A DNA stretch of 7,539 bases from Candidatus Bathyarchaeota archaeon (GTDB lineage Archaea; Thermoproteota; Bathyarchaeia; TCS64). The notes beneath the pieces are model-generated. The model worked only from the letters and a program-made list of their open reading frames with translations. It ran no database searches and was not told where the DNA came from. The DNA lies in assembly GCA_937877765.1 (NCBI GenBank), contig CALGBN010000290.1, forward strand, positions 1 through 7,539, in the 5' to 3' direction. Position numbers and translations under genes: made by a program. Below are positions 1 through 6,905 of the stretch, piece by piece. Position 1 is the first letter of the stretch; every line of letters starts with the position of its first letter.

Positions 1-68
1 TGATACGGCGACCACCGAGATCTACACCGTCTAATTCGTCGGCAGCGTCAGATGTGTATAAGAGACAG
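1..68 (+). other. Illumina Nextera adapter (sequencing artefact)
   Basis: This is library adapter, not genome. Bases 1-27 match the P5 flow-cell sequence minus its first two bases. Bases 28-35 (CGTCTAAT) are an 8-base i5 index, which I recall as Nextera XT index S510. Bases 36-49 are the read-1 primer part, and 50-68 are the 19-base Tn5 mosaic end (AGATGTGTATAAGAGACAG). Genomic sequence begins at 69. Translating this stretch gives the familiar contaminant peptides MCIRDR on the plus strand and VSYTHLTLPT on the minus strand, and neither should be annotated as protein. Confidence 0.98.
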
Positions 69-882: not shown

Positions 883-1635
883 ATGGGCATATGTTATCAC
901 TGCGGAAAAGAGGTTGACCCGCCGGTCAGGTGTCCTTACTGTAACCTGACCTTCTGTGATGAACACCTACCCCAGAAAGCCCATAACTGTATCGCATTAT
1001 CAAGCAACCTACAAGGCATCAAACCCGAGCCAGTAACCAAAACAATACACTACGTACAACCAGAAGAAGACGAGGAAATCCAGAGACCTCGCCCAAGAAC
1101 AGTAAAAAGGAAAAAAACAAGCTTCCTAGGGCAAGGAATCACAAAACAAAAGGTACTCATAGTTGTACTCACTCTCGCATTAAGCCTTGCAAGCGTATTG
1201 ATGCTATGGCAATGGGAACCAGACGACGATGGACCACCAGTAGGACCTGTATTCCCCATATCCAAGGAAACTATAGAGCAACAAGAATATGTCCTAACAC
1301 TCATCAACAAGGAAAGAGTCAAAGAAGAACTACCAGAACTAACACTCAATAACAACAGCATAGCCCAACGATACGCCGAGGAACTACTCAGAACAGGAAA
1401 CCTCAAGAATAACCCTGATCTTCCGGCGAATATGGGTGAGAACCTCATGTACTTTGAGGGCGAGGATTTCAACGTAACCATCGTATTGGACGCGTTAATC
1501 TATGATATGGTCTACGATGACGCTGATTATGAGTGGGGAAACAGGGACAACATACTCTATGACGAATATACGGCTGTAAGTATCGGTGTCGCCTATGATG
1601 AGAACAACCTGTATCTTGTTCAGGATTTTAGCTAG
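883..1635 (+). CDS. AN1 zinc finger - transmembrane - CAP/SCP-like domain protein
   Basis: This 250-residue protein has three parts. Residues 4-36 form a complete AN1-type zinc finger with eight ligands in the family spacing: C4, C7, C17, C20, C25, H28, H34, C36. A charged linker (about 40-88, acidic then Lys/Arg-rich) leads to one membrane span (about 91-110). Residues about 126-250 resemble a CAP/SCP (PR-1-like) domain: helix 'LINKERVKEELPEL', the GEN motif at 185-187, 'WGNRDNIL' at 218-225 and the end strand 'VSIGVAYDENNLYLVQDF'. Positive residues before the span suggest that the zinc finger is cytosolic and the CAP part outside. The CAP histidines are absent: N220 stands where related proteins often have His (WGHRDNIL), and no His precedes GEN, so metal-dependent activity is doubtful. 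Substrate and partners are unknown. The fusion suggests linking an outside domain to a cytosolic, possibly ubiquitin-like or protein-binding, module. Confidence 0.85.
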   Translation: MGICYHCGKEVDPPVRCPYCNLTFCDEHLPQKAHNCIALSSNLQGIKPEPVTKTIHYVQPEEDEEIQRPRPRTVKRKKTSFLGQGITKQKVLIVVLTLALSLASVLMLWQWEPDDDGPPVGPVFPISKETIEQQEYVLTLINKERVKEELPELTLNNNSIAQRYAEELLRTGNLKNNPDLPANMGENLMYFEGEDFNVTIVLDALIYDMVYDDADYEWGNRDNILYDEYTAVSIGVAYDENNLYLVQDFS

Positions 1636-4421: not shown

Positions 4422-4877
4422 CTACTCTTCTATGTCGTAGCTTACTTCGAGTACTTGTTTGCTGTTTCTGTATCTTGTTTTAGTGATGCGTATTTTTCCT
4501 ATTTCGCCTGTGGTTTTTGTGTGTTTTTTGATGCAGGCGTTGACGTTCCAGTCTGGTAGGTGGAATATTGTGACCGTTTGGATGGTTTCTGGGAGGGGGA
4601 ACTTGTCGTATATCCAGTCGCCCAATCTTTGTTCGGCTTCTTTTCTTGTCATTGTGTAGGTTTCTATCGCTGCGTCTTCCGCGATCTTCATATCTACTTT
4701 CGTTTGTATCTGTGCGAGTTGTTCGGGTGTTGGTTTTCTTGGGTATTCTACTGCGATGCGTCCATGTGCTCCGTCTATTCCTGCGCTTGTGCTCCATTTG
4801 GCGTCTGCTCCGAGTACTTTGACGATGGCGCCTTTGACTATGTGTAGTGCTGTGTGGGTCTTTACCTCGATTGACAT
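4422..4877 (-). CDS. alaX: AlaX-type (short form) alanyl-tRNA editing protein
   Basis: This 151-residue protein corresponds to the free-standing editing domain related to that of alanyl-tRNA synthetase. Such proteins remove serine (or glycine) wrongly attached to tRNA-Ala. The zinc-binding signature is complete: HXXXH at H8-H12 (HTALH) near the N-terminus and CXXXH at C115-H119 (CIKKH) near the C-terminus. The length and lack of an extended glycine-rich/N-terminal region fit the short AlaX-S class, known from Pyrococcus. The start at 4877 (MSIEVKTHTALH) places the HXXXH where homologues have it. The coding strand is strongly A+C-rich throughout, the reverse of neighbouring L40e, so the bias follows the DNA strand and not the gene. 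It is convergent with L40e and divergent from vapB. Confidence 0.88.
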   Translation of the reverse strand: MSIEVKTHTALHIVKGAIVKVLGADAKWSTSAGIDGAHGRIAVEYPRKPTPEQLAQIQTKVDMKIAEDAAIETYTMTRKEAEQRLGDWIYDKFPLPETIQTVTIFHLPDWNVNACIKKHTKTTGEIGKIRITKTRYRNSKQVLEVSYDIEE

Positions 4878-4893
4878 GGGCGTCTATATGGGG

Positions 4894-4909
4894 TTATTTT
4901 TGAAAAATG
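4894..4909 (-). promoter_or_regulatory. AT-rich possible core promoter for alaX
   Basis: On the minus strand an AT-rich block (CATTTTTCAAAAATAA) is centred about 25 nt before the alaX ATG, where a leaderless archaeal promoter would sit. It is itself an inverted repeat (TTTTT-G-AAAAA). No good consensus TATA is present, so this is tentative. Confidence 0.25.
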
Positions 4910-4997
4910 TATTGGGTGATGTCTACTGGTGGGTACTTTGGGGAAAAAATTTTCTTGTGGGAGAGGGTGGGAAGAGTTAATCATTTCGGTAATGTTC

Positions 4998-5049
4998 CAT
5001 GTGTTTTTTCCATGTATTGTGTGCATGTTTATATCTCATGTTTGGTTTG
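4998..5049 (+). repeat. Four 13-bp iterons (CATGTNT) upstream of vapB: candidate operator
   Basis: CATGT starts at 4998, 5011, 5024 and 5037, exactly 13 bp apart, and position 7 is T in all four copies (CATGTNT). The CATG core is palindromic, as suits a symmetric dimeric regulator. The array surrounds a TATA-like TTTATAT (5028-5034) and ends 15 bp before the vapB start. Ribbon-helix-helix antitoxins commonly repress their own promoter by cooperative binding to such arrays. That VapB binds here is inference. Confidence 0.6.
5028..5034 (+). promoter_or_regulatory. Putative vapBC TATA box inside the iteron array
   Basis: TTTATAT is centred about 34 nt before the vapB ATG, so transcription would start some 7-10 nt before it. 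No Shine-Dalgarno site is visible. Lying in the third CATGT iteron, it would be blocked by any protein occupying the array. Confidence 0.45.
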
Positions 5050-5064
5050 ATTTATTGGGTTCGT

Positions 5065-5301
5065 ATGGTTGAGAAAGTAGTGCAAACCGAGTTATCAAGA
5101 ACCGAGTATGAGAGACTCAAAGAAGTTTCCACAAGAAAGAAAATAAGCCTGAAAGAAGCGCTACGACAAGCGGTAGAGGAGTGGGTAAGACAACAAACAC
5201 CAATAGACGCTGATCCATTATTCAGTCTAGAGCCTAAAGACACAGGTGTAGAGACCGATTCAAGTAGTCTAGATAAGGAGCTCTACGGTAAACAACGATG
5301 A
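5065..5301 (+). CDS. vapB: VapB-like antitoxin (ribbon-helix-helix type)
   Basis: This 78-residue protein has two parts. Residues 1-44 (VVQTELSRTEYERLKEVSTRKKISLKEALRQAVEEWV) have the strand-helix-helix pattern of a CopG/ribbon-helix-helix DNA-binding domain. Residues 49-75 ('DADPLFSLEP..TGVETDSSSLDKELYG') form the acidic tail typical of archaeal VapB partners, which wraps and inhibits the PIN toxin. The start at 5065 gives the usual short N-terminal strand; the in-frame extension back to 4999 would code across the iterons and promoter. It overlaps vapC by four bases (ATGA), so the two are translationally coupled. The gene is intact although its toxin is interrupted, leaving an apparently orphan antitoxin that may still act as a repressor at its own CATGT array. 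Confidence 0.85.
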   Translation: MVEKVVQTELSRTEYERLKEVSTRKKISLKEALRQAVEEWVRQQTPIDADPLFSLEPKDTGVETDSSSLDKELYGKQR

Positions 5302-5431
5302 ACATATTTCTTGATACTTCTGCTATAGTGGCTTGGTTTAACAAACGTGACAAATACCATGAAGATGCTCAGAGAGTACTCAAAGATATTCGAGAACGCA
5401 GGTTAGATTTCACTCGTTTCATATTATCGGA
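5298..5431 (+). pseudogene. vapC: vapC toxin, 5' fragment (residues 1-45), interrupted by IS
   Basis: This is the first third of a PIN-domain ribonuclease toxin, starting MNIFLDTSAIVAWFN with the first catalytic Asp at D6. The frame is intact to residue 44 and the first two bases of codon 45, where the insertion sequence begins at 5432. Read-through into the IS gives a foreign tail and a stop at 5489, for a 63-residue product lacking three of the four acidic residues, so it should have no nuclease activity. Joined to 6629-6905, without the IS and one CGGA copy, it gives exactly 137 codons with no stop, reading 'RFILSDYILDES' across the join, the usual PIN sequence around the second acidic residue (E50). 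The intact ancestor was a normal 136-residue VapC. Confidence 0.92.
5428..5431. repeat. Target-site duplication CGGA, left copy
   Basis: CGGA directly precedes the left end of the IS and is repeated directly after the right end (6625-6628). Keeping a single copy restores the vapC frame exactly, which confirms it as the duplicated target. Confidence 0.88.
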
Positions 5432-5455
5432 GAGGATTTTGATTAACTTCGTGTT
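5432..5455 (+). repeat. IS left terminal inverted repeat
   Basis: Twenty-four bases beginning GAGGATTTTGATTAAC. Compared with the complement of the right end, mismatches fall at positions 4, 8, 14, 15, 19 and 22. The GAG...CTC tips are exact. Confidence 0.85.
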
Positions 5456-5512
5456 TTCACCATTTCTATCCCCTCGGGTAGACTTTTAGATCACTTGATC
5501 CATCAAACACAT

Positions 5513-6448
5513 ATGACCTCCTTCAAAGCATACATCCTCCGAGAAGCCTACAAAAAACACTGGAAACACAACGACAAACTAGCCCAAGCAGAAGCACTCA
5601 TCGACTGGAACGCCTTCACACCCATCATCCAACCCATGTACACCAACCAGGGACCATGCGGAGGACGCCCCAACACGGACCCAGTGGTGATGATGAAGCT
5701 CCTCGTACTACAAGCATGGTACGGCCTCAGCGACCCAGAGCTGGAACGCCAAGCAGGCAATCGAATCGATTTTATGCATTTCCTCGGTTTCCCCGAAAAA
5801 GCACCCGACTATAGCACCGTATGGAGGTTCAGGGAACGATTGGCTGAGACGGGCCGGGACAGGCTTGTCTGGGATGAGATGCAGCGTCAGCTGGATGAGA
5901 AGGGACTCAAGGTCCGGAAGGGTGTGGCTCAGGACGCCACGTTCATCACAGCGGATCCGGGGCACGCACCCGTGGATAAGCCTCGTGGGGGTGATGCGAA
6001 GACGAGGCGGAGCAGGGATGGTGCATGGACGAAGAAAGGCGGACGGTCTGTTTTTGGTTATAAGCTGCACATGAAGATGGACCTAGATCATGGCCTTATC
6101 CGGTGTTTGGAGGCTTCGGCTGCGAATGTTCATGACAGCCGGGTGGATCTATCAATGCCGGGTATGGTGGTGTACCGGGACAAGGGATACCAGGGTGTGG
6201 TGCCCCGGGGTTATGATGCTACTATGAAGAGGGCCTCTCGTGGTCATCCTTTGAGTATTTGGGACAGGTTGAGGAACCGGCGTATAGGCAGGAAACGGTG
6301 TCCGGGTGAGAGGCCTTTTGCGGTGATTAAGCGTGTGTTTGGGGGTGGTCATGTGTTGGTGACGTCGTTGCCTAGGGTCCGGGTGAAGCTGGTGTTTGCG
6401 TGTTTGTGTTTTAACATTGTTCAGTTGGGCAGACTGGGCGTGGGTTGA
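5513..6448 (+). CDS. IS5-family-like DDE transposase
   Basis: This 311-residue enzyme cuts and joins the IS ends. An N-terminal DUF772-type region (about residues 35-110, with 'RPNTDPVVMMKLLVLQAWYGLSDPELERQ' and 'FLGF....PDYSTVWRFRERL') precedes an RNase H-like catalytic core with D141 (AQDATF), D223 (YRDKGYQG) and E266 (CPGERPFAVIKRVFG), the DDE triad, including the Y-(2)-R-(3)-E-(6)-K-like C-terminal signature of the wider IS4/IS5 group. The ATG at 5513 is preferred; a TTG at 5495 would add six residues. CTTTTAGA at about 5483-5490 could serve as a TATA box for a near-leaderless transcript. Codon use is odd: 51 of the first 55 degenerate codons end in A or C, while 51 of the last 60 codons end in G or T. 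The gene looks functional. Confidence 0.93.
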   Translation: MTSFKAYILREAYKKHWKHNDKLAQAEALIDWNAFTPIIQPMYTNQGPCGGRPNTDPVVMMKLLVLQAWYGLSDPELERQAGNRIDFMHFLGFPEKAPDYSTVWRFRERLAETGRDRLVWDEMQRQLDEKGLKVRKGVAQDATFITADPGHAPVDKPRGGDAKTRRSRDGAWTKKGGRSVFGYKLHMKMDLDHGLIRCLEASAANVHDSRVDLSMPGMVVYRDKGYQGVVPRGYDATMKRASRGHPLSIWDRLRNRRIGRKRCPGERPFAVIKRVFGGGHVLVTSLPRVRVKLVFACLCFNIVQLGRLGVG

Positions 6449-6555
6449 CAGCGTAAGCATTGGATCTCGGGGTGGAGAACGGTTGGAAACGGGGGTTATG
6501 GGTGGCTGCTGGGTGAGTGAAGAGGTGGTTAGATGGGAGTTGTTGGCTGGTTTGA

Positions 6556-6579
6556 GGATGTTTCATCCGCAAGGATGCG
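6556..6579 (+). repeat. Overlapping, mutually exclusive hairpins near the IS right end
   Basis: GGATG-TTT-CATCC (6556-6568) and CATCC-GCAA-GGATG (6564-6577) are both perfect 5-bp stems sharing the central CATCC; the second closes on a GCAA tetraloop of the stable GNRA class. A third small stem, CGCA-AGGA-TGCG (6568-6579), overlaps them. All lie in the noncoding right flank of the IS, between the transposase stop and the right terminal repeat. The role is unknown; transcript 3'-end formation or transposase-site structure are possibilities. Confidence 0.5.
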
Positions 6580-6600
6580 TAAAAGAACGGTAGCTGAAAG

Positions 6601-6624
6601 AAAACAAAGAAAATCATAATTCTC
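6601..6624 (-). repeat. IS right terminal inverted repeat
   Basis: The complement begins GAGAATTATGATTTTC and matches the left end at 18 of 24 positions. The IS ends in CTC at 6624, immediately before the second CGGA. Confidence 0.85.
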
Positions 6625-6628
6625 CGGA
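6625..6628. repeat. Target-site duplication CGGA, right copy
   Basis: Second copy of the 4-bp target, directly after the IS right end; it pairs with the copy at 5428-5431. Confidence 0.88.
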
Positions 6629-6905
6629 TTATATTCTTGACGAGTCGCTGACCTTCTTTGAGTCAGTTATTAAGGATCATGATTTAGCGGTGGCAGTAGG
6701 TGAGGCGCTGATGAATAGTAGTTATGTAGCTATTGAACGTGTTGATGAAGAAACCTTTGACGAGTCTTGGCAGCGATTCAAACACAGCTCTGGACTCAGC
6801 TTCACTGACTGCACAAGTATGACCCTGATGGATGAGCTAGAAACAAGGCATGTATTCACATTCGACCAACACTTCCGTGACGCTGGATACCGTCAAATAA
6901 GATAA
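6629..6905 (+). pseudogene. vapC: vapC toxin, 3' fragment (residues 45-136)
   Basis: This fragment carries the last two thirds of the PIN-domain toxin. It begins with the third base of codon 45 and reads 'YILDESLTFFESVIKDHD', then 'SSGLSFTDCTSMTLMDELETRHVFTFDQHFRDAGYRQI' before TAA. It holds the remaining predicted catalytic acids in full-length numbering: E50, D105 (FTDC) and D124 (TFDQHF). The frame has no stop or frameshift, so it shows no decay since the insertion. It has no start of its own in a sensible place; the ATG at 6690 would give a partial domain lacking the N-terminal strand with D6 and also E50. Expression could come only from a promoter within the IS or from excision of the element. 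Confidence 0.92.

What the first reader, a model, noticed from the sequence alone, without database searches (positions are those of the whole stretch)
5298..6905. Recent, precisely reconstructible IS disruption of a VapC toxin
Removing the IS (5432-6624) and one CGGA copy joins the two vapC pieces into exactly 411 nt: 136 residues plus stop, no frameshift, with the PIN acids D6, E50, D105 and D124 all present and the motif LSDYILDE restored across the joint. The absence of decay in the 3' fragment implies either a very recent event or a mixed population in which the uninterrupted allele still exists.
Basis: partly seen in the sequence, partly recalled or inferred. Interest (0 to 1): 0.72.

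Follow-up and report, generated by a model that had tools for sequence, protein, structure and literature searches.

The report
Jumping gene split an archaeal toxin
In an uncultured archaeon, likely a Bathyarchaeota member, a 1.2-kb IS5-family jumping gene has cut a predicted VapC toxin gene in two, probably recently because an uncut and nearly identical version exists in public protein data; the event is real but of an ordinary kind.

Summary
A 1193-nt IS5-family element (5432-6624), bounded by imperfect inverted repeats and a 4-bp duplication (CGGA), sits inside a PIN-domain vapC gene that overlaps the end of a vapB-like gene. Insert plus one duplicate copy is 1197 nt (3 x 399), so both pieces share a frame.

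A public 136-residue protein (P0001; 1407-nt contig, source undisclosed) matches the 3' piece at 92 of 92 residues and the 5' piece at 43 of 44. The one difference, residue 13, is private to P0001: the window agrees with all five next-closest relatives, which differ from it at 16-19 of 136 positions. 'Recent' is therefore well supported. Coexistence in one sample is untested: neither reads nor the DNA of P0001's contig were available.

The likely consequence is loss of VapC with VapB kept; neither piece holds all four PIN acids. IS inactivation of a gene is a familiar kind of event (general knowledge). Bases 1-68 are sequencing adapter, whose 19-base core occurs 270 times in this assembly.

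The parts
5065..5301 (+). vapB-like antitoxin gene, 78 aa, open and whole; its last bases overlap the vapC start
   Evidence: within the ORF; weak RHH_1 (PF01402) hit below cut-off, E 0.076; 8 of 12 relatives are 88-94% identical over 99-100% of it; a vapB relative lies just upstream of vapC in the 5 best loci of other family genomes
5298..5431 (+). 5' piece of vapC (44 whole codons plus 2 bases, including one CGGA copy); carries D6 only
   Evidence: PIN PF01850 E 5.8e-4, profile 1-29; 43 of 44 residues identical to P0001
5428..5431 (.). target-site duplication, left copy (CGGA)
5432..6624 (+). IS5-family insertion sequence, 1193 nt, 53% GC in a 44% GC surround
   Evidence: NCBIfam NF033581
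5432..5447 (+). left terminal inverted repeat (12 of 16 bases match the right one)
5513..6448 (+). IS5-family transposase, 311 aa from ATG 5513 (317 aa from TTG 5495); D141, D223, E266 and R262-x3-E266-x6-K273 present
   Evidence: PF05598 and PF01609; NF033581 221.7 bits, cut-off 140; conservation across the 120 listed proteins, itself included
6449..6608 (+). 3' tail of the IS after the transposase gene; no Rfam match
6609..6624 (-). right terminal inverted repeat
6625..6628 (.). target-site duplication, right copy (CGGA)
6625..6905 (+). 3' piece of vapC (92 whole codons 6627-6902 plus stop); carries E50, D105, D124; the longest ORF listed inside it starts at GTG 6690, beyond E50
   Evidence: PIN PF01850 E 1.1e-4, profile 49-117; 92 of 92 identical to P0001; ORF

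Best explanation
An IS5-family insertion sequence lies inside codon 45 of a predicted vapC toxin gene, flanked by a 4-bp target duplication, and has probably arrived there recently, leaving the neighbouring vapB-like gene whole. Shown: the element, its ends, the duplication, the frame relation, and a natural uninterrupted protein almost identical to both pieces. Inferred: the encoded transposase (DDE acids present), or that of another copy, put the element there; the split leaves D6 apart from E50, D105 and D124, so neither piece would make a working PIN nuclease; the cell would then keep VapB without its own VapC. Also inferred: the uninterrupted form is ancestral, because the 13 other proteins found with the 3' piece, apart from the window's own fragment, are all of full length (135-137 aa).
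For: 4-bp duplication and inverted repeats at both ends. Frame sum 1197 = 3 x 399. Transposase above NCBIfam's curated IS5 cut-off, 221.7 against 140 bits. Of 8 related elements with both ends found, this one included, 7 are 1179-1236 nt long and one (L029) is 786 nt; 4 of the 8 have identical 4-bp flanks. Intact protein P0001: 92 of 92 and 43 of 44 residues. Residue 13 is W in the window and in 5 of 5 next-closest relatives (P0002-P0006) but L in P0001, so the single difference falls on P0001's branch; P0002-P0006 differ from the window at 16-19 of 136 positions. Zero changes in 136 residues gives a rough 95% upper limit of 3/136 = 2.2% amino-acid change since the split (my arithmetic).
Against: No raw reads, so the junctions rest on one assembly. 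P0001 is known as a protein only; its DNA, sample and neighbours were not seen, so silent differences are unknown. The target CGGA is unlike the TA-rich targets of the three other duplicated copies (TATA, TATG, TATA), and 4 of 8 elements show no duplication. No identical second IS copy is in this assembly: the 7 other matches are 67-76% identical, so no donor is seen here; an identical transposase is listed on two contigs of at most 2570 nt (P0015), which by length cannot be this window. Loss of VapC activity is inferred, not tested.
Confidence: 0.93

Rival explanations
1. The sample held a mixed population: P0001 and the window are two alleles of one site in the same community, one with and one without the IS. 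This is compatible with the best explanation and adds to it.
For: P0001 differs by one residue of the 136 compared and lies on a short 1407-nt contig of undisclosed source. A strain-level variant would look like this.
Against: Nothing ties P0001 to the same sample. Its private residue 13 shows that it is not simply the same strain minus the IS. In the assembly G000 the P0001 search matched only the two pieces in this contig.
Confidence: 0.4
2. Assembly artefact: the contig wrongly joins vapC pieces to a stray IS copy.
For: The assembly has a known flaw: the adapter core occurs 270 times in its 573 contigs, including bases 50-68 of this window.
Against: A matching 4-bp duplication exactly at both inverted repeats is not made by misassembly. 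No identical IS copy exists elsewhere in the assembly to cause a wrong join. The adapter lies at the start of this contig, over 5 kb from the junctions.
Confidence: 0.03
3. Precise excision: the interrupted form is older and P0001 is a lineage that lost the IS cleanly.
For: A paper says that IS5 has in one case been shown to excise precisely from the E. coli chromosome (PMC11677980, passage seen).
Against: P0002-P0006 and the 7 more distant proteins are of full length, and the five best loci in other family genomes are uninterrupted, so intact is the simplest ancestral state. An old insertion should have gathered changes in the 3' piece; no amino-acid change is seen.
Confidence: 0.03

Closest known systems
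IS5-family insertion sequences (NCBIfam NF033581 group)
   Same: DUF772 + DDE transposase above the curated cut-off, about 1.2 kb, terminal inverted repeats, 4-bp duplication
   Different: Target CGGA does not fit the C(A/T)A(G/A) consensus given for E. coli IS5 (PMC11677980, passages seen); the nearest copies in its own assembly are only about 75% identical. Not compared with ISfinder, which is not held here
VapBC type II toxin-antitoxin modules; nearest solved chains by sequence are VapC20 (5wzf, E 7.7e-7) and the archaeal AF_1683 (1w8i, E 1.5e-4) (query P0001)
   Same: PIN domain with the four acids in the intact form; vapB-like gene upstream with overlapping ends
   Different: Here the toxin gene is split; the VapB-like protein matches the ribbon-helix-helix model only below its cut-off

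Membership tests
IS5 family | transposase above a curated IS5 model cut-off | tested here: met
   NF033581 221.7 bits against 140
IS5 family | DDE acids and the R-x3-E-x6-K signature (motif recalled from general knowledge) | tested here: met
   D141, D223, E266, R262 and K273, each in at least 99% of 120 proteins, the window's own included and all from the best 120 listed of 3640 hits. The tyrosine that I recall three places before R is glycine here
IS5 family | terminal inverted repeats | tested here: met
   12 of 16 outer bases, 19 of 26
IS5 family | 4-bp target duplication, as in E. coli IS5 | tested here: met
   CGGA on both sides here; identical 4-bp flanks in 4 of 8 elements with both ends found; 4 bp stated for IS5 in PMC11677980 (passage)
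IS5 family | transposition activity | not testable with these tools
   needs an assay
VapC (PIN toxin of VapBC) | PIN domain | tested here: met
   both pieces hit PF01850, each just under the gathering score; intact P0001 carries PF01850 in the precomputed table
VapC (PIN toxin of VapBC) | four conserved acids in one chain | tested here: not met
   present in P0001 at 6, 50, 105 and 124, but divided between two pieces in the window: the window holds a broken vapC, not a working one
VapC (PIN toxin of VapBC) | antitoxin gene directly upstream | tested here: met
   the vapB-like ORF ends inside the vapC start; same order in the 5 best loci of other family genomes
VapC (PIN toxin of VapBC) | RNase toxicity neutralised by VapB | not testable with these tools
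   needs an assay
VapB antitoxin | known DNA-binding antitoxin fold | tested here: inconclusive
   RHH_1 E 0.076, 13.4 bits against a cut-off of 20.5; no NCBIfam hit at E 0.01

The most novel reading that the evidence does not exclude
The insertion is a snapshot of a wild archaeal population shedding a toxin while keeping its antitoxin: an IS5-type element turns vapBC into a solitary, protective antitoxin, and both alleles still circulate side by side.
Probability: 0.3. Interest if true: 0.4.

Novelty: new member of a known kind. Interest (0 to 1): 0.25.

Why it matters
It is a clean example, dated by comparison, of IS-driven toxin-gene loss in an uncultured archaeon, with the uncut allele at hand. 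It also outlines an IS5 subgroup in this archaeal family (seven elements of 1.18-1.24 kb with GAGRATT-like ends). It does not change how TA modules or IS elements are understood.

Tried and rejected
Viral origin: scans of viral contigs with the transposase and with P0001 found no relative by tblastn. Named genome with the uncut allele: the genome-contig scan with P0001 gave only two Desulfobacteraceae loci with 21- and 23-residue matches, rejected as not the allele. A known structured RNA in the window: no Rfam match at gathering score. vapBC as a fixture of this site in the genus: not borne out in the four same-genus genomes looked at (of seven). In G016, G018 and G019 two other genes lie upstream of the alanyl-tRNA-editing-like gene where the window has vapBC; G017 has another gene there; no vapB or vapC match in those four loci of about 3.2-3.5 kb. 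Literature: four searches (15 of 122, 12 of 650, 2 of 2 and 1 of 1 papers listed). I saw titles and abstract starts only, and none of those names this event; that is no proof that it is unreported. I read passages of one paper (PMC11677980).

Limits of searches: one search scored at most 2 candidates a genome, so its counts for single genomes are lower bounds. In one search, 53 of 256 class genomes matched P0001; matches with an internal stop, besides the window's own 5' piece, were in G128 and G226 (one TAG each), and several others were partial. I did not study these.

Full report
What was checked. The window is the whole contig C290 (7539 nt) of an unnamed assembly, G000: 2,477,147 bases, 573 contigs, 77.83% complete, 4.27% contaminated. 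It looks archaeal: it encodes a ribosomal L40e-family protein and an M42 peptidase, and the hits to VapC, VapB and the transposase whose listing names an organism are from Candidatus Bathyarchaeota. That assignment is an inference.

The insertion. Bases 5432-6624 form an element of 1193 nt with inverted repeats at its ends (12 of 16 outer bases) and CGGA on both sides. It encodes a transposase with DUF772 and DDE_Tnp_1 domains that passes NCBIfam's IS5 cut-off, 221.7 against 140 bits. D141, D223 and E266 are each kept in at least 99% of the 120 proteins listed, itself included. The same assembly has 7 further matches to the IS at 67-76% identity, some of them fragments. In the family, 12 of 27 genomes, G000 included, have a match; among the other 229 class genomes only one has, over 35 bases of the IS, though that search scored at most 2 candidates a genome. 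In the 19 loci scanned for ends, 8 elements showed both; 4 have identical 4-bp flanks (CGGA, TATA, TATG, TATA) and 4 do not.

The interrupted gene. Both pieces match the PIN family in successive parts of the profile. Insert plus one duplicate is 1197 nt, so the frame is kept. The split separates D6 from E50, D105 and D124. The vapB-like gene upstream is whole; 8 of its 12 relatives found are 88-94% identical over 99-100% of it. In the five best loci of other family genomes a vapB relative directly precedes vapC. Four VapB hits and four VapC hits share contig lengths (1186, 3538, 5248, 7828), which suggests that they are neighbours there too (inference from lengths).

The uncut allele. The protein search with the 3' piece alone returned 14 proteins. 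The best, P0001, is 136 aa, on one 1407-nt contig, and identical at 92 of 92 residues. It is also identical to the 5' piece at 43 of 44. P0007 in that list is a 64-aa stretch on a 7539-nt contig, evidently this window's own fragment. P0002-P0006 are 86-89% identical over the 3' piece, and all are 136 aa. At the only position where window and P0001 differ, residue 13, the window agrees with all five; so the change falls on P0001's side. The window therefore carries no detected amino-acid change since the split, against 16-19 differences of 136 to the next relatives. This supports a recent insertion far better than the mere openness of the 3' frame.

Limits. P0001's DNA and origin are not disclosed, so neither silent divergence nor sample could be compared. 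Metagenome scans and raw reads were not available. The 90%-identity clustering of the protein database can hide near-identical copies.

Consequence. The most likely result is loss of VapC activity with VapB kept. This is inferred from the split active site and was not tested. An antitoxin without its toxin would be harmless or protective; nothing here shows selection for it.

Verdict. The finding is right in its facts and, on the evidence of P0001, right in its main reading. It is a new member of a known kind: a gene inactivated by an insertion sequence. Interest is modest.

Noticed in passing
window 1-68: Untrimmed Illumina P5/Nextera adapter with an index (adapter names recalled). Its 19-base core occurs 270 times in the 573-contig assembly (140 forward, 130 reverse; 0 for the reversed control). 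Of the 100 places listed, the forward ones lie within the first 73 bases of their contigs; for the reverse ones I know the contig length only for C162 and C58, where they lie near the end. The minus-strand ORF 31-288 therefore ends in adapter-encoded residues.
   Followed up: yes
G018:C124:17575-18084 (L030, L034): A short element matching only IS positions 5-320 and 1069-1193, with one end recognised: a likely internally deleted, non-autonomous copy.
   Followed up: partly
G000:C182:623-628 (L006): Two IS ends face each other with 4 bases between them, as if one element landed beside another.
   Followed up: no
window 883-1635: Protein with an N-terminal AN1-type zinc finger (E 2.5e-6) and a C-terminal CAP domain (E 2.4e-6), a combination that seems unusual to me.
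   Followed up: no
window 4422-5301: vapBC lies next to a conserved alanyl-tRNA-editing-like gene, but in the four same-genus genomes looked at (G016-G019) other genes occupy that side; vapBC was gained here or lost there.
   Followed up: partly
window 6449-6608: Tail of about 160 nt between the transposase gene and the right end of the IS, with no Rfam match; IS positions 1064-1193 are also matched in the copies on C162 (75%) and C182 (76%).
   Followed up: no
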